DNA of 64,000 nucleotides from an uncultured bacterium. Lineage in GTDB: Bacteria; Verrucomicrobiota; Kiritimatiellia; RFP12; UBA1067. The position numbers and the translations under genes are program-made. Positions 3,772 to 31,297 of the stretch are shown here, piece after piece. Under the pieces are notes generated by a model that saw only the letters and a program-made list of their open reading frames with translations, searched no databases and was not told where the DNA came from. The stretch spans positions 1 to 64,000 of the forward strand of contig CADCCQ010000010.1 in the NCBI GenBank assembly GCA_902799955.1. Reading direction: 5' to 3'. How positions within the stretch are numbered: the first letter of the stretch is position 1; each line of letters opens with the position of its first letter.

Positions 3772-4055
3772 TACTTCCGTTTGTCCAGCGCCTTGTTGCG
3801 ATTGTGCAATTGTGGGATTATGCAATCAGCCATGTCAAACAAGTTGAAAGGTTGAAAAGTTGAAAGGTTGAAAAGTTCCGATCCTCCTGACTCGGCATTC
3901 GACACGCGACATGCGACACGGCAAGATCGTGCACAGCAATTCCATAATTCCACAATCTCCCTCATGCAGAAGGGCCGGATTCTTTTGCTTTTATGTTTCG
4001 GCAGGGCGCGCCATCCAGATGCACCGCGGCCGGGCGGGCCGACCTTCGTGTCGGC
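3772..4055. other. Intergenic stretch between argG and the LamG protein gene
   Basis: No gene is visible here. It holds short-word repeats (GCAATTGTGG-type words near 3800-3830, GTTGAAA words at 3843-3877, GACACGCGACATGCGACACG near 3901, TTCCATAATTCCACAAT near 3940) and a short hairpin (GGCCGAC / GTCGGCC, about 4037-4056). The words recur elsewhere in the window, so this looks like a landing zone for dispersed repeats. Confidence 0.6.
3843..3877. repeat. GTTGAAAG/GTTGAAAA tandem array (8-bp period)
   Basis: Four consecutive 8-base units alternate between GTTGAAAG and GTTGAAAA and end in GTTCC. It is one of several short-period arrays in the window. Confidence 0.85.
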
Positions 4056-25764: not shown

Positions 25765-27165
25765 ATGGGCGTGGCATTTCAGGCGGGAAACGACGAATCC
25801 GGCGGGCGTGAAGCCCGGTGCGGCAGTTGGCGGCTTCTGAACGAGGTGGGACGCGGCGCATACGGTTCCGTCCATCTCGCGGAAGGGCCGGACGGCCGGC
25901 GCGCGGCGGTGAAGGTCTGCCGCCGCGACGCCGTCGGCGACGAGCGCTACGAGCGCGAACTGCGCGGCGCCAAGCTGTACAGGGCGATCCCTCCGCAGGA
26001 GGGGCTTGTCCGCATGATGGACCTTGCCGAGGCGGACTGGGGCTTCTACACGGTGATGGATCTCGCGGACGACGAATTTGGCGGGCCGCAGGATTCGAAG
26101 TCGGGCTATCGTCCGAAGACGCTCGCGCGCGTAATCGAGGGCGAGAAGGCGCTGCCGCTCAAGGAGTGCGTCAAGCTTGCCCTGTCGCTCGCGAACGGAC
26201 TCGCCGCGCTTCAGCGCCACCACCTCCTACACCGCGACATAAAGCCCGCGAACGTGCTGTATGTCGGCGGCAGGCCCGTCCTTTCCGACCCGGGGCTTCT
26301 CGTCGAGGAATCTGCGGCGGCATCGCTCGTCGGCACGCCGGGGTACGTCCCGCCGGAGAGGTTCACCGACGCCTCCAGCGACATCTACAGCCTGGGCCTC
26401 ACGCTCAAGGCGGCGAGTTTCGGGAGGCGCGTCGAGGACCTCGACAAGGGACCGTCTGTAGAGGCCGATACTGGGGCTGCCTTCTTCCCCGCATGGTGGC
26501 GCATCCTCAACAAGGCTACGGACCAGACGCCATCGCGCCGCTACCAGTCCGCCAAGGCGCTGCTGAAGGACTTGAGGATTTTGAGAATGAGGATTGCGCT
26601 GGCGGCGACTGTCTGGTCATGGGGCGGGAAAATCGCAATAGCGCTGCTTGTGCTTGCGCTCATTGTGACTTCAACTATGAGTAGTGTGCGACAACTTGCC
26701 TTGAAGAGGGAGATTGTCCAGCAGAAGGAGCAGATTGCGCCACTCAAGAAGTTCAAGACTGACACTGAGGAGATGATGGAGAGATCGCGCCAGGAGGCTC
26801 TTTGGGGCATTTATTGCACCGATTTCACAAAAATAGGTGGAATAGAATCTCCGCTGACGAGGCATAAGCGTAATCTTGCCACAATCGAGGCCGTTGATAA
26901 GGTCAAGGCTGCGAAATTCCGATCACTGCTAGACAAGTTGGAAGAACTTGTCGCAAAAGAGAACGCACTACATCAGTCTATTGTTCAATTGCGCAAGGTT
27001 GCTGAAGAAAAGAAAAAGAAAGGCATTTACATTACGGAAGAGTTTTATCAGGCCGAAGAAATCTACAAAGAGAAATCCCAACTCAATAAAACGAAGGCGA
27101 AACCTCTTGAAGACGAACTGAAGGCCATGTGGGAAGATTTTAAGGCGGGGGGAAAAAGTAAGTGA
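25765..27165 (+). CDS. Membrane-anchored Ser/Thr protein kinase
   Basis: Hanks-type kinase of 466 residues. The kinase domain (about 20-270) has the glycine loop VGRGAYGSV, AVKVC (Lys), HRDIKPANVL (catalytic loop) and PGYVPPERF. The metal-binding motif reads DPG instead of DFG. One membrane helix (about 290-310) follows, then an extracytoplasmic coiled coil to the end with no known sensor domain. The base composition falls toward A+T in the last 600 bases. It is followed by an ECF sigma gene that overlaps by four bases. Kinase and sigma pairs of this kind are frequent in Planctomycetes and Verrucomicrobia. No strong ribosome site precedes the ATG. Confidence 0.85.
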   Translation: MGVAFQAGNDESGGREARCGSWRLLNEVGRGAYGSVHLAEGPDGRRAAVKVCRRDAVGDERYERELRGAKLYRAIPPQEGLVRMMDLAEADWGFYTVMDLADDEFGGPQDSKSGYRPKTLARVIEGEKALPLKECVKLALSLANGLAALQRHHLLHRDIKPANVLYVGGRPVLSDPGLLVEESAAASLVGTPGYVPPERFTDASSDIYSLGLTLKAASFGRRVEDLDKGPSVEADTGAAFFPAWWRILNKATDQTPSRRYQSAKALLKDLRILRMRIALAATVWSWGGKIAIALLVLALIVTSTMSSVRQLALKREIVQQKEQIAPLKKFKTDTEEMMERSRQEALWGIYCTDFTKIGGIESPLTRHKRNLATIEAVDKVKAAKFRSLLDKLEELVAKENALHQSIVQLRKVAEEKKKKGIYITEEFYQAEEIYKEKSQLNKTKAKPLEDELKAMWEDFKAGGKSK

Positions 27166-27794
27166 CATACAGATACTTCAACAACGAATCGACGCGCTCC
27201 AGCGTGCTGAGGGCGGTAGCGGATACGCAGAACGAGGCCGCGTGGCGGCGGTTCTTCGACCTATATGCGGGGTTCATCTACTCGATTGCGCGCTCGAAGT
27301 GCATGGGCGACACGGATGCGGACGACATCGTCCAGGTAGTGTTCGCCGACCTCGTGCGGACTCTTCCGACGTTCAAGTATGACAGAACGAAGGGTAAGTT
27401 CAGGTCGTACCTCTCCGGACTCGTCCACTGGCGCGTCATGGACAGGCTGAAAGCGGGCAAGCGCGATGCGGACATAAAGGCGGCTTTCTGTGACGAATCG
27501 AAGACTGCGGCATCTTCCCCTGGCGACGACGGTTTTGCCGAACGCGAATGGCAGGCCGCCGCGCTGGAGGAGGCGCTTCGCCGAATCAAGCCCGATGTCC
27601 GCCCCGAGCATTACGCGGCGTTCGTCGCGAGCGCGGTGGAAGGGCAGGATACGGAATCCGTCATGCGGCTCTACGGCCTCACCAGCGACAACCTGTACCA
27701 GATCCGCAAACGCCTCACAGAGAGGCTTCGCGAGACTGTGGCGGCGGTCCTTGCAGAAATGGACGCGCCCGATGCGCCTGGTCCTCGGCCTTGA
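27162..27794 (+). CDS. ECF-type RNA polymerase sigma factor
   Basis: 210 residues with region 2 at about 30-95 (FFDLYAGFIYSIARSKCMGDTDADDIVQVVFADLVRTLPTFKYD) and region 4 at about 145-200 (SVMRLYGLTSDNLYQIRKRLTERL). The GTG start overlaps the stop of the kinase gene (GTGA), so the two proteins are made together. The likely partner is that kinase, which may act on the sigma factor or its anti-sigma factor; the target promoters are not visible. Its last 80 bases overlap the convergent ATP-grasp gene. Confidence 0.85.
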   Translation: MTYRYFNNESTRSSVLRAVADTQNEAAWRRFFDLYAGFIYSIARSKCMGDTDADDIVQVVFADLVRTLPTFKYDRTKGKFRSYLSGLVHWRVMDRLKAGKRDADIKAAFCDESKTAASSPGDDGFAEREWQAAALEEALRRIKPDVRPEHYAAFVASAVEGQDTESVMRLYGLTSDNLYQIRKRLTERLRETVAAVLAEMDAPDAPGPRP

Positions 27795-28683
27795 TCGCAT
27801 TTGCGACCATTGACACAAGGCCGTGCTCGTTCTTCTCGTCGAGCCACGCCCACTGTCCGTTGGGATTCAGTTCTAGGAACCAAAGCTCTCCGTCCTTGCG
27901 GATGAAGTCGAAGCGTCCGAATCTGTAGCCGGTTTCGTCCATGAAACCCTTAATGGCGCGTTCGTCGGCGGTAGAGAGTTCGCATCGCGGCCAGGGTGCC
28001 GAGTTTGAGAAGATCGACTTGCGGGAATCTTCTCCGTCGAACGAGTCGCGCGGCGCACTCGCCGCGTAGGTTTTGCCGTCGATGTAGACGACGGTCATTT
28101 CTTCCTCTCCGTCTATGCGCTTTTGCAGGAACCATGGATAACTGAGGTCGAGCGCGGAGGGATCAACCTCTTTGACGAAGAATATCTTGTCTTGTCCAAT
28201 TGGCGTCGCGGTCATTGATTTGGCGACCCATCTGCCGAGTTTGAGTTCTTCTGGAAGTTCGCCATGGAAGAAGTGCCATGGCGCGACGCGAAAGTATTTC
28301 TCGGCAGCAAGCAATTGGCGCAGTTTGCCGTACTTGTTGTCCTGGCAACGGACGAGCGCGACCAATCCCCGGTGCTGGCATTCGCGGAAAAGATCTTTGA
28401 ACAATTCATTTGTTTCCTCACGTCGCCAATTTTCAAGGCATCCGAATCTGGGTACGTCGATGAAGGTTGTATACAAGGGTTTACGAAGATAAAACGCCGT
28501 GAGGGACTTGTCGGAAATCTCCTTGTCGGCAACTTTGTTGGAGATGCGGAACCCACCACGGTGAAAGTCCCATGTGAAGTCACCGGGTTCGTCGATGTTG
28601 AATCTCAGAACATCGCCTTTATTCAATTCCCTCATGACGATATCGGTAGTTGCGTCTTGGCTGCAGGTGGCGATGAGTATCAT
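27715..28683 (-). CDS. ATP-grasp peptide ligase, graspetide (MvdD/GwsG-like) type
   Basis: 322 residues. The N-terminus (MILIATCSQDATTDIVMREL, then VLRFNIDEPGDFTWDFHRGGFRISN) matches the pre-ATP-grasp domain of microviridin-type ligases. The central part has the ATP-binding Lys pair (WVAKSM) and FLQKRIDGEEEMTVVYIDGKTYAAS, and the C-terminal end has the metal-binding motif LWFLELNPNGQW (E and N). Such ligases form ester or amide bonds between Thr/Ser/Lys and Asp/Glu side chains of a precursor. A 45-residue precursor and an exporter lie upstream. AGGA stands eight bases before the ATG. The last 20 codons run into the sigma factor gene. Confidence 0.8.
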   Translation of the reverse strand: MILIATCSQDATTDIVMRELNKGDVLRFNIDEPGDFTWDFHRGGFRISNKVADKEISDKSLTAFYLRKPLYTTFIDVPRFGCLENWRREETNELFKDLFRECQHRGLVALVRCQDNKYGKLRQLLAAEKYFRVAPWHFFHGELPEELKLGRWVAKSMTATPIGQDKIFFVKEVDPSALDLSYPWFLQKRIDGEEEMTVVYIDGKTYAASAPRDSFDGEDSRKSIFSNSAPWPRCELSTADERAIKGFMDETGYRFGRFDFIRKDGELWFLELNPNGQWAWLDEKNEHGLVSMVANAIKAEDQAHRARPFLQGPPPQSREASL

Positions 28684-28720
28684 GGTAACAATCCTGTCGG
28701 ATTCGCTGGTTTAAGGACTA

Positions 28721-28740
28721 GGGGCTAGCGAACTAGCCCC
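28721..28740 (-). promoter_or_regulatory. Hairpin between precursor and ligase genes
   Basis: A perfect 8-base stem GGGGCTAG/CTAGCCCC encloses a TTCG loop on the minus strand. No T-run follows, so it is not a normal terminator; partial read-through or mRNA protection would favour precursor over ligase. Confidence 0.6.
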
Positions 28741-28765
28741 CAGCGCTGTTGGAATGATTTTTGAC

Positions 28766-28903
28766 TCAGCCCCAGGAGGACCAGTCATCTATGGTCAAAG
28801 TCCCACCGACGTAGCTTTGCGTGCCTGTCATTGTAGACGTGATGTCTCCGCTGTTCGATGGTTGCAGGCCTGCGATGTCGGTCGCTATATCATTTGGTGT
28901 CAT
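28766..28903 (-). CDS. Putative RiPP precursor peptide with double-glycine leader
   Basis: A 45-residue peptide: leader MTPNDIATDIAGLQPSNSGD continuing to SYVGG, core TLTIDDWSSWG. The leader has the double-Gly type ending and the core has Thr, Ser and Asp residues suited for side-chain ester formation, plus two Trp. AAAGGAA lies 11 bases before the ATG. It sits between an ATP-grasp ligase and an ABC transporter on the same strand. No database family is recognised; the cleavage site and the modified residues are inference. The gene is easy to miss because of its size. Confidence 0.7.
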   Translation of the reverse strand: MTPNDIATDIAGLQPSNSGDITSTMTGTQSYVGGTLTIDDWSSWG

Positions 28904-28927
28904 TTTTCTGTTTTTCCTTTCTTGTTT

Positions 28928-28939
28928 TTGGTTAACCAA
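28928..28939. promoter_or_regulatory. 12-bp palindrome TTGGTTAACCAA upstream of the precursor
   Basis: A perfect palindrome 25 bases before the precursor start. It could bind a regulator or be chance; the local sequence is A+T-rich. Confidence 0.35.
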
Positions 28940-28980
28940 ATGCAACGGACACCCGTCCGATGCACAATCGTATACGACGG

Positions 28981-30654
28981 TCAATTCATAATCTGACAAA
29001 ATATTTTCTCGTCGCAGAGGTCTATCATCGCCGGGTCGTGGCTGACTACGAGGACGATGCGTCCTGGAGCAAGTTTGCGGATTAGTTTCCCGAAGGCGGT
29101 GCGGGCGTCCGCGTCGAGATGGTTCGTGACCTCGTCCAGCACGAGGAGGCCAGGTCTGCGCACGAGCGCGCGGGCGATTGCAAGACGCTGCATTTCCCCG
29201 CCCGAAAGGGACTGTCCCCACAGCCCTACGCGCGTGTCGAGCCCGTCCGGCAGCCTCTTTACGACTTCGTCAAGTCCGCTTAGCGCAATGGCCTCGTCTA
29301 TGTCGTCTTTGGTGAACATTGGGTCGCGCAGGGTTATGTTGTCGCGCACCGTGCCTGTGACGAGGAGGCTGTCCTGGAATACGATCCCGATTTCGCGCCT
29401 GAAGAACGCGGCGTCAAGCGCCGACATCGGCGTCCCGTTGACGAGGATTTCGCCGGACTGCGGTTCAAGCGTGTTTGTGGCCAGCCTTAGGAGCGTCGTC
29501 TTCCCGGTGCCGTTGGCCCCGACCAGTGCGACGACCCTGCCGGCCAGGAAGGTCGCTGAGAAGCCGTTTACCACTGGTTTCCCGGCGTTTGCGCCTGGAT
29601 AGGCGAAAGAAACGTCACGGAACTCTATGCGCTCTATGGCCTTGATTTTGCATTCGCCTCGTTCTGGCGGCGCATACGAGAGTATCTCGCCGAGCGAATC
29701 GACTCCTTCGCGCAAGGTCGCCGCCTCTGGAAGGAGTGCCACAACCCCCTGTACGGACTGCATTGCCGTCATGAACAGCATCTGGTAGACGACCACGTCG
29801 CCGACGGGAATCGCGCCTTTCGCTGCGAGGGAACCGGCGACGCCGAGAACCGCGATTTCCCCGACGACAAGTATTGCGCCGAGGAGTGCGCCGAAGACGA
29901 CCATGAGGCGGTCCAGTGCGCAGTTGCCGTCCTTGAGGTTGCGCATAGACTGCCGGGGGGCGTCGGCAAAGCGCCGCTCCGCGTCGAGTGCGCGGAGGAA
30001 GGGCAGGGTGCGGAAGAAGTCGAAGAGGGAGGCGAAGGCTCCGTCGCTTTGCTTGCGTACGGCATGGGAGTTGTCTGCGAAGCGTCTGGCGAAGGGGATG
30101 AAGAGGGCGATGCAGAGCGGGATGAACGCCATGAAGGAGAAGCATAGCGCGGACGAGCGCGAATGCAGGGCGAATCCTGCGGCGACCATCGTGACGACGG
30201 CGACGACAATGCGCGGGTAGAGTCCGCCCACGAACCCGCCGACCGCGTAGATGTCCCGCGTCAGCTTGGCGACTAGCGACCCGTCGGCTAGGGTCGATAG
30301 CCTTGAAGGGGGGAAGCCCATGACGGCGTCCAGGACCTTCTCTTGCAGGCCCAGCTCGATTTTCCTTTCGCAGACCTGGATCAGCCGTTGCAGGCAGGGC
30401 GTCATCGCGGCTCGGACGAGCAGCAGCGCGGCGAGCGCAAAGAAGGGGTGTGTCGCAGGCTGTTCCGCGACAAGAGCGTCGATGAAACGCCCCGTTGCGA
30501 ACGGCACTGCTATGCCGGCGGCGGTCTGCACGACAAGAAGCGGGGCGTGTACGAAAGCGATGACAGGGGTGGAAAGGAGCAACGAGGCGAGAAACCGTAT
30601 CCGCCCGATCTCCGCCCCCTGTTTTCCGATGTTCAACTTTGAGATTCTGTCCAT
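28981..30654 (-). CDS. ABC transporter, fused membrane and ATPase domains
   Basis: 557 residues: six membrane helices in the first 330, then an ATPase domain with Walker A GANGTGKTT, signature LSGGEMQRLAIARAL, Walker B LLVLDE and switch VVSHD. This is a half-transporter exporter that works as a homodimer. It lacks the C39 peptidase domain, so another protease must cut the double-Gly leader if it exports the adjacent precursor. Position and orientation (78 bases ahead of the precursor gene) suggest it exports the finished peptide. The ATG at 30654 has only a weak purine site. Confidence 0.85.
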   Translation of the reverse strand: MDRISKLNIGKQGAEIGRIRFLASLLLSTPVIAFVHAPLLVVQTAAGIAVPFATGRFIDALVAEQPATHPFFALAALLLVRAAMTPCLQRLIQVCERKIELGLQEKVLDAVMGFPPSRLSTLADGSLVAKLTRDIYAVGGFVGGLYPRIVVAVVTMVAAGFALHSRSSALCFSFMAFIPLCIALFIPFARRFADNSHAVRKQSDGAFASLFDFFRTLPFLRALDAERRFADAPRQSMRNLKDGNCALDRLMVVFGALLGAILVVGEIAVLGVAGSLAAKGAIPVGDVVVYQMLFMTAMQSVQGVVALLPEAATLREGVDSLGEILSYAPPERGECKIKAIERIEFRDVSFAYPGANAGKPVVNGFSATFLAGRVVALVGANGTGKTTLLRLATNTLEPQSGEILVNGTPMSALDAAFFRREIGIVFQDSLLVTGTVRDNITLRDPMFTKDDIDEAIALSGLDEVVKRLPDGLDTRVGLWGQSLSGGEMQRLAIARALVRRPGLLVLDEVTNHLDADARTAFGKLIRKLAPGRIVLVVSHDPAMIDLCDEKIFCQIMN

Positions 30655-30744
30655 ATTCTACTTCTAACATACGACGAGTTTTCGGAAATCTGACAAACGG
30701 AGCCCGACAAGAATCGCGCCTTGCTGCCCTTGAGAGTATATTTG

Positions 30745-30838
30745 CTTGAAAATCGCATTTGTCATTTTCAAGTAAGTTTTACTGCATTGTATGGCTGAAA
30801 AATTTACTTGAAAATCGCATTTGTCATTTTCAAGTAAA
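30745..30838. repeat. Two copies of a palindromic 31-bp repeat
   Basis: CTTGAAAATCGCATTTGTC followed by ATTTTCAAGTAA occurs twice, 61 bases apart. The second copy is a 13-base perfect inverted repeat (30803-30815 with 30826-30838) around CGCATTTGTC. The function is unknown; it precedes the ATPase remnant. Confidence 0.8.
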
Positions 30839-30855: not shown

Positions 30856-31209
30856 AACGATCTGTTCCCGTATCTGGGAATAGACAAGTCACTTGTCCTA
30901 TCGGCGTTTCCATACGTTCAAACGCCAACGAAGCGTCATCGCGGATGCCAGATTGACCTCCTCGTCCAGACCCAGCGCACGCTTATTGTAGTTGAAATCA
31001 AGCGATGCAAGGAGATTGGATACGAAGTTGTAGACGACGTTTCCGAGAAGATCAAACGCCTTGACTACGACAAGACGCTGTCCGTACGCACCGCGCTGGT
31101 ATATGATGGGCGGCTTTCGCCGCGCGTGGAGGCGGACCACTTCTTCGACTTTGTAATTCCCGCCGACTGGCTCTTTGGTGTGAACTGCATTAGTGTCCGC
31201 AGAGGTTGA
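30856..31209 (+). pseudogene. C-terminal remnant of an AAA-family ATPase with nuclease-like domain
   Basis: The frame lacks a start codon (a stop lies just before it at 30853). It translates to LFPYLGIDKSLVLS, then RHRGCQIDLLVQTQRTLIVV and EIKRCKEIGYEVVDDVSEKI, ending at 31209. This is the well-known C-terminal part of the 'AAA ATPase, PD-(D/E)XK nuclease-like' proteins of gut bacteria, with the motif QIDLLVQT...VVEIKR. The ATPase part and the N-terminus are missing, so it is a degraded copy. It lies between the RiPP exporter and the sugar kinase genes. Confidence 0.75.
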
Positions 31210-31297
31210 TGGCAGAAGTGCGTTTACTTCTGTAATCGGATTGCAAGGGCAGATGAATGTTCATGGAACGGGAGATGCATTAGCCTTCCGTTTATGG

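What the first reader, a model, noticed from the sequence alone, without database searches (positions are those of the whole stretch)
27715..30654. Probable undescribed graspetide-type RiPP cluster: ABC exporter, double-Gly precursor, ATP-grasp ligase
The precursor (45 residues) was not in any obvious gene call: it ends YVGG then TLTIDDWSSWG. The core has Thr, Ser and paired Asp, the residues joined by graspetide ligases, plus two Trp. The ligase has an N-terminal pre-ATP-grasp domain like MvdD/GwsG. The exporter lacks a peptidase domain. I know no graspetide class with core TxTxDDWSSWG. Order ABC-A-B on one strand supports a functional unit.
Basis: partly seen in the sequence, partly recalled or inferred. 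Interest (0 to 1): 0.85.

Follow-up and report, generated by a model that had tools for sequence, protein, structure and literature searches.

The report
Stress-controlled ring-peptide cluster in rumen bacteria
A small gene cluster in gut Kiritimatiellae bacteria very probably makes and exports a ring-closed peptide of the graspetide kind, sits beside its own predicted sigma-factor/kinase switch, and swaps the peptide part together with half of the ring-closing enzyme between strains, although the chemistry itself is untested.

Summary
In detail: an ABC exporter (30654-28981), a 45-residue precursor (28903-28766) and an ATP-grasp ligase (28683-27715) lie in that order on the minus strand. The ligase is graspetide-type: its best structural matches are MdnC, AMdnB, MdnB, PruB, CdnC and PsnB. 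A precursor lies upstream of all 24 relatives of the ligase that could be checked; in 96 related genomes it occurs in 16 of 17 with the ligase and in none of the others.

The double-glycine reading fails. GG is present in 10 of 24 precursors, no C39 peptidase is found in the genome, and invariant Thr28 lies before the GG. Invariant core residues are Thr28, Asp39 and Asp40; I predict two Thr-Asp esters (-36 Da).

A TGTCAGAT-N14-CGTA promoter-like element precedes the precursor in 24/24 loci and, in other genomes, DegP-like, MreB, M16 and DUF445 genes. Near-identical loci differ by a swapped core plus ligase N-terminal half.

Verdict: graspetide cluster, a new variant of a known kind; ring chemistry, regulation and target are untested.

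The parts
28981..30654 (-). ABC exporter (permease + ATPase, 557 aa, no peptidase domain)
   Evidence: upstream of the precursor in 20 of 24 loci
28766..28903 (-). graspetide precursor, 45 aa; leader about residues 1-19, core about 20-45; invariant T28, D39, D40
27715..28683 (-). ATP-grasp ligase (graspetide-synthetase type, 322 aa)
27162..27794 (+). ECF-type sigma factor (210 aa), convergent with the ligase and overlapping its 3' end by 80 bp
25765..27165 (+). Ser/Thr protein kinase with one predicted membrane segment, same operon as the sigma factor
28972..28999 (-). promoter-like element TTGTCAGAT-N14-CGTAT before the precursor
30669..30696 (-). the same promoter-like element before the ABC exporter
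28942..28963 (-). 5' leader hairpin GCATCGGAC-GGGT-GTCCGTTGC
   Evidence: 9-bp stem kept in 19 aligned loci, both-sided changes at three pairs
28928..28939 (-). palindrome TTGGTTAACCAA just before the ribosome-binding region
28717..28744 (-). hairpin between precursor and ligase (likely attenuator or processing stem)
   Evidence: stem in every locus; MFE at or below all 100 shuffles in 22 of 24

Best explanation
This is a graspetide (omega-ester peptide) biosynthesis and export locus. The ATP-grasp ligase recognises the conserved leader (MTPN[DE]IAT.I.GL), activates the two adjacent aspartates (Asp39, Asp40) and joins them to two upstream threonines (Thr28, and Thr26 or Thr24). This gives a nested, hairpin-like bicyclic peptide with two ester bonds (-36 Da) and a variable loop, in which the GG of this member lies. 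The ABC transporter exports it; the leader is cut by a protease outside the cluster. An ECF-like sigma factor under a membrane Ser/Thr kinase switches on the exporter and the precursor-ligase transcript through TGTCAGAT-N14-CGTA promoters, probably as part of an envelope-stress response. A hairpin after the precursor gene keeps precursor in excess over ligase. Strains exchange the core together with the first half of the ligase while keeping exporter and leader. Shown here: gene order, conservation, co-occurrence, ligase fold and conserved catalytic-site residues, conserved element and hairpins, cassette pattern. Inferred: ring number and connectivity, leader cleavage, sigma-promoter pairing, stress trigger, biological target.
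For: Ligase: graspetide synthetases are the top 31 chains by Foldseek and the top 9 entries by VIA-align, Z 18.7-21.3 against 17.1 for RimK; K155, K166, E195, D219, R221, D259, E271, N273 invariant; D219-x-R221 aligns with DWR of AMdnB and MdnB. Precursor: 24/24 loci; co-occurrence 16/17 against 0/79; invariant T28, D39, D40; T-x(1,2)-T-x(6,14)-DD in 24/24. Regulation: element at -80 to -101 in 24/24 loci, reversed-pattern control 0 of 96 genomes, sigma orthologue within reach in 19 of 24 loci, sigma-element association p 3.5e-6, and p 6e-4 in ligase-free genomes; other genes behind the element are DegP-like, M16, MreB, DUF445. Cassette.
Against: No mass or activity data. Curated family cut-offs are not reached. 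Model confidence is moderate (pLDDT 72, residues 69-90 below 50). RimK and other ATP-grasp ligases have the same overall fold. The genomes compared are related and incomplete, so p values are optimistic. No protease for the leader is identified. Three of the six genomes shown without a nearby sigma gene or with the element but no sigma may be due to missing contigs; this cannot be checked.
Confidence: 0.75

Rival explanations
1. One reading: a double-glycine leader is cut after Gly34 and the core is TLTIDDWSSWG, with rings between Thr35/Thr37/Ser and the aspartates.
For: GG is present in this member and in 9 relatives; Thr37 is shared by the closest cores.
Against: GG absent in 14 of 24, and the stretch is missing altogether in six; no C39 peptidase in exporter or genome; invariant Thr28 lies before GG.
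Confidence: 0.06
2. The ATP-grasp enzyme does not close rings but adds amino acids to, or ligates something onto, the small peptide, in the manner of RimK.
For: RimK has the next best fold match (Z 17.1).
Against: All graspetide synthetases rank above it; the invariant residues of the peptide are internal Thr and Asp-Asp while its C-terminus is variable in length and sequence.
Confidence: 0.08
3. The ring peptide is right, but the promoter-like element belongs to another sigma factor, and the neighbouring sigma/kinase pair is only a frequent neighbour.
For: Seven related sigma factors in this genome; the sigma-kinase operon itself lacks the element; G014 and G016 have the strict element but no close sigma orthologue.
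Against: The sigma gene stays with the cluster in several different placements and orientations; the element goes with the sigma orthologue even in ligase-free genomes (p 6e-4).
Confidence: 0.35

Closest known systems
Microviridin/chryseoviridin synthetases MdnB, MdnC, AMdnB, CdnC and their precursors (graspetide group 1)
   Same: Fold over residues 1-300 (Z 19.5-21.3); the D-x-R and E-x-N positions; precursor gene beside the ligase; exporter nearby
   Different: About 20% identity; no PFFARFL leader; adjacent DD acceptors instead of the SDWE type of core; one ligase, not a pair; sigma/kinase neighbours
Plesiocin (PsnB/PsnA2, group 2)
   Same: Fold (Z 18.7-19.3); two adjacent acidic acceptors; two esters per unit in plesiocin (PMC12291112), two predicted here
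   Different: Asp-Asp instead of Glu-Glu (plesiocin core from general knowledge), single unit instead of repeats, different leader, donors one or two residues apart
Fuscimiditide/graspimiditides and TIGR04187 maturases of actinobacteria (including PruB)
   Same: Best NCBIfam score (TIGR04187, 80.5 bits); nested Thr-Asp esters with a loop (PMC12291112) is the arrangement predicted here
   Different: Far under the cut-off of 350 bits; no methyltransferase gene in the cluster; adjacent acceptors
CPR graspetides, branch 1 of PMC8939145, signature TxxxTx(6-10)Dx(1-4)D
   Same: Two Thr followed at similar distance by two Asp
   Different: Adjacent DD here; no Phhx(1,2)h leader motif (0 of 24); different phylum
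ECF41-type sigma factors and promoters (PMC3426412)
   Same: TGTCACA / CGTC promoter resembles TGTCAGAT / CGTA; sigma gene beside its target genes
   Different: -35 and -10 letters differ; this sigma is paired with a membrane Ser/Thr kinase

Membership tests
Graspetides (class) | ATP-grasp ligase of the macrocyclase type | tested here: met
   Fold and sequence relatives; conserved residues
Graspetides (class) | Short precursor next to the ligase with conserved leader and Ser/Thr/Lys plus Asp/Glu in the core | tested here: met
   24/24 loci, invariant T28, D39, D40
Graspetides (class) | Side-chain ester or amide rings in the product | not testable with these tools
   Needs mass spectrometry
TIGR04187 (GRASP_SAV_5884), TIGR04185 (MvdC), TIGR04184 (MvdD) | Score over the curated cut-off | tested here: not met
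   80.5 against 350, 57.2 against 425, 32.6 against 475 bits
Microviridins (group 1) | PFFARFL leader | tested here: not met
   Absent in all 24 precursors
Graspetides with the Phhx(1,2)h leader motif (PMC8939145) | Pro-hydrophobic-hydrophobic-x(1,2)-hydrophobic in the precursor | tested here: not met
   0 of 24; PMC8939145 reports it in about half of precursors, so it is not required for the class
Double-glycine leader peptides | Conserved GG and a C39 peptidase | tested here: not met
   GG in 10 of 24; no PF03412 in exporter or in the genome (92% complete)
Numbered graspetide groups (43 in PMC13097080) | Placement in the synthetase network | not tested
ECF sigma factors | sigma70-ECF superfamily score over cut-off | tested here: met
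   TIGR02937 55.2 bits against 42.9

The most novel reading that the evidence does not exclude
A graspetide family in Kiritimatiellae that belongs to an envelope-stress regulon: a membrane Ser/Thr kinase and its ECF sigma factor switch on the peptide, its exporter, a small terminated RNA and DegP-like proteases from one promoter type, and the peptide core is exchanged between strains as a cassette together with the N-terminal half of the ligase, which would make core-enzyme specificity directly mappable.
Probability: 0.4. Interest if true: 0.75.

Novelty: new variant of a known kind. Interest (0 to 1): 0.6.

Why it matters
Graspetides are known as protease inhibitors, but why bacteria make them and what turns them on are mostly open. 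Here a candidate regulator can be named and tested, and other genes behind the same promoter-like element (DegP-like protease, M16 peptidase, MreB) point to envelope stress. The natural exchange of core plus ligase N-terminal half between near-identical loci gives ready-made matched and mismatched enzyme-substrate pairs to find which part of a graspetide synthetase reads the core. I found no paper in the library searched that reports graspetides from Kiritimatiellae, but supplementary tables were out of reach.

Tried and rejected
Double-Gly processing: rejected. Pfam for ligase and precursor: nothing usable. NCBIfam for the precursor: no hit. Rfam on the cluster and on eight related loci: nothing credible; the hits at 30741-30838 are to microRNA models and reflect an inverted repeat. 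The palindrome TTGGTTAACCAA(AA) as a genome-wide regulatory site: rejected, it occurs once in this genome. A second ligase in the genome: none. A base-pairing match between the small RNA and the 5' leader of the precursor was seen by eye in some genomes and not in others (L028, L038), so not pursued. Mobile or viral origin: viral contigs and plasmids hold only distant relatives, 21-43% identical, the higher figures over short segments. Correlation of leader distance with ligase or core distance: no clear signal.
Full report
What is there. On the minus strand lie an ABC exporter (30654-28981, 557 aa), a 45-residue ORF (28903-28766) and an ATP-grasp protein (28683-27715, 322 aa), in that order. 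The exporter has a permease and an ATPase domain and no peptidase domain. The ATP-grasp protein matches curated peptide-maturase models only in part (TIGR04187 80.5 bits against 350; MvdC 57; MvdD 33). Its nearest solved relatives by sequence are AMdnB, MdnB, PruB and CdnC (names also).

Fold of the ligase. An AlphaFold2 model from 22 relatives has mean pLDDT 72. Foldseek ranks 31 chains of graspetide synthetases (AMdnB, MdnC, CdnC, PruB, MdnB, PsnB) above the first RimK. VIA-align gives Z 21.3 (rmsd 2.9, 260 aligned) for MdnC and 18.7-20.2 for the others, against 17.1 for RimK, over residues 1-300, so the N-terminal domain is included. K155, K166, E195, D219, R221, D259, E271 and N273 are invariant in 22 sequences. 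D219-x-R221 aligns with the DWR of AMdnB and MdnB.

The family. Of 96 related genomes 17 have the ligase. A scan of named genomes gives 20 loci, mostly bins named Kiritimatiellae or Verrucomicrobia; those whose names give a source are from ruminant gut (goat, sheep, yak). One of them (L038) has an in-frame TGA in the core. A profile of the precursor finds exactly one copy in 16 of the 17 ligase genomes and none in the other 79; the missing one has its ligase cut by a contig end. The precursor is under purifying selection (pN/pS 0.48 in the leader, 0.59 in the rest).

The core. Only M1, T2, P3, T28, D39 and D40 are invariant in the 20-row alignment. T-x(1,2)-T-x(6,14)-DD occurs in 24 of 24; GG after residue 24 in 10 of 24; a Trp after DD in 15 of 24; the Phhx(1,2)h leader motif of about half of known graspetides (PMC8939145) in none. 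In six relatives the loop where GG sits is absent. The genome shows no C39 peptidase, whereas 8 of 14 control genomes do. I conclude that GG is part of a variable loop and not a cleavage site, and that the conserved donors lie upstream of it. Two Thr-Asp esters in nested order are the simplest reading; this is inference. Nested cross-links are known from OEP6-1 and fuscimiditide, and two esters per unit from plesiocin (PMC12291112). More distant ligases in the phylum (36-39% identical) also have a small upstream peptide, ending VDDWNIC, IDDWHLC, VDDWHLA or IDDWHLA.

The neighbours. Downstream and convergent lie a predicted ECF-type sigma factor (27162-27794; TIGR02937 over cut-off) and a Ser/Thr kinase with one strongly hydrophobic stretch (25765-27165). 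Protein clustering around the loci shows only four widely shared families: ligase, exporter, kinase, sigma. The sigma relative (40-81% identical) is within the fetched DNA in 19 of 24 loci, in several placements and orientations; two of the other five are cut by contig ends close by. Across 96 genomes a close sigma orthologue (E up to 1e-40) and the ligase co-occur (14 of 17 ligase genomes, Fisher p 7e-9).

The promoter-like element. TTGTCAGAT-N14-CGTAT occurs twice in the window, before the precursor and before the exporter; none is expected by chance. TGTCAGA[TA]-N14,15-CGTA lies 80-101 nt before the precursor ATG in 24 of 24 loci, including L029, L031 and L032 where the upstream DNA is not the exporter gene. 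The strict form is in 17 of 96 genomes, the reversed control in none. It goes with the sigma orthologue (p 3.5e-6), also among ligase-free genomes (p 6e-4); the genomes are related, so these values are optimistic. In other genomes it precedes DegP-like trypsin-PDZ proteases, an M16 peptidase, an MreB protein and a DUF445 protein, and a small structured RNA. The form resembles ECF promoters; ECF41 reads TGTCACA/CGTC (PMC3426412), and control of ECF factors by Ser/Thr kinases is known (PMC8103513). That this sigma reads this element is inference.

Hairpins. The spacer between precursor and ligase holds a stem in every locus, with unlike sequences; the fold is at or below all 100 shuffles in 22 of 24. 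A stem-loop in this place is usual in RiPP operons, where it lowers enzyme relative to precursor (general knowledge). Before the precursor, a 9-bp stem is kept in 19 aligned loci with changes on both sides at three pairs.

Cassette exchange. In pairs of loci with 93-95% identical exporters, the core is 21-28% and the ligase N-half 69-77% identical (L020/L022, L020/L023, L024/L027, L035/L040, L035/L051), while the DNA on both sides of the exchanged stretch is mostly 84-100% identical; in other pairs (L022/L023, L040/L051) core and N-half are alike together. Conversely L025 and L034 share core, spacer and ligase start almost letter for letter (98-100%) with exporter DNA that is about 50-73% identical over most of its length. 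Over 19 loci core distance follows ligase N-half distance (r 0.23, permutation p 0.006; partial 0.32 given the exporter) and not exporter distance (r 0.00). The unit that moves is the core with the part of the ligase that may read it.

How it most likely works. Stress at the envelope acts on the kinase; the sigma factor turns on the exporter and precursor-ligase transcripts; the ligase binds the leader and closes two rings on the core; the exporter passes the peptide out; a general protease removes the leader. Shown: the parts, their conservation and co-occurrence. Inferred: ring chemistry, trigger, cleavage, target. Known graspetides such as microviridins and plesiocin inhibit serine proteases (PMC13097080); DegP-like genes behind the same element make a protease target worth testing, no more.

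Novelty. The kind is known (graspetides: 43 groups in PMC13097080; 174 families in PMC8939145). The variant parts are the leader, the Thr...Asp-Asp core without a cleavage GG, the lineage, the sigma/kinase neighbourhood and the cassette exchange. Diversity of cores beside similar ligases is already reported as a general trait (PMC8939145). I could not read the supplementary tables, so an existing group number is not excluded.

Noticed in passing
L060 (this genome, contig C56, about 3232, minus strand); L063 (contig C60); also L019, L020, L024, L027, L028, L034, L038, L113, L114, L115, L116: A small RNA-like element of about 100 nt, (A/G)TGCCATTAGGC...CCGGCTGAGAGAGCCCGG..., ending in a long stem followed by T's, with the same TGTCAGAT-N14-CGTA element in front in most copies; no Rfam match; 8 of 23 predicted pairs have both-sided changes. 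It lies beside the sigma gene in L113 and L114 and divergent from the exporter in several loci.
   Followed up: partly
27715-27794: The 3' ends of the ligase and sigma genes overlap on opposite strands; a similar convergent overlap recurs in most loci where the two are neighbours.
   Followed up: no
30745-30834: Two copies of an inverted repeat (ttacttgaaaatcgcatttgtcattttcaagtaa) upstream of the exporter, which draws spurious microRNA matches in Rfam.
   Followed up: no
30900-31210: Remnant of a coding frame...CQIDLLVQTQRTLIVVEIKRCKEIGYEVVDDVSEKI...VIPADWLFGVN, with no good start; looks like the nuclease-like end of an AAA-ATPase gene (by eye only).
   Followed up: no
L038, about 3910-3990: The precursor of this relative has an in-frame TGA between the conserved Thr pair and DD (LSTNYTYCSG*NGQRLDDSHTWD); decay or a sequence error.
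   Followed up: no
L131 and L132: Distant ligases (25-29% identical) in other families of the phylum also have an ECF sigma and a Ser/Thr kinase relative within about 2-6 kb and an upstream peptide with an Asp-rich end; whether this is more than chance was not tested.
   Followed up: partly
L036: One copy is on a contig of a bin named Selenomonadaceae; at 78% ligase identity it is probably a wrongly binned Kiritimatiellae contig.
   Followed up: no
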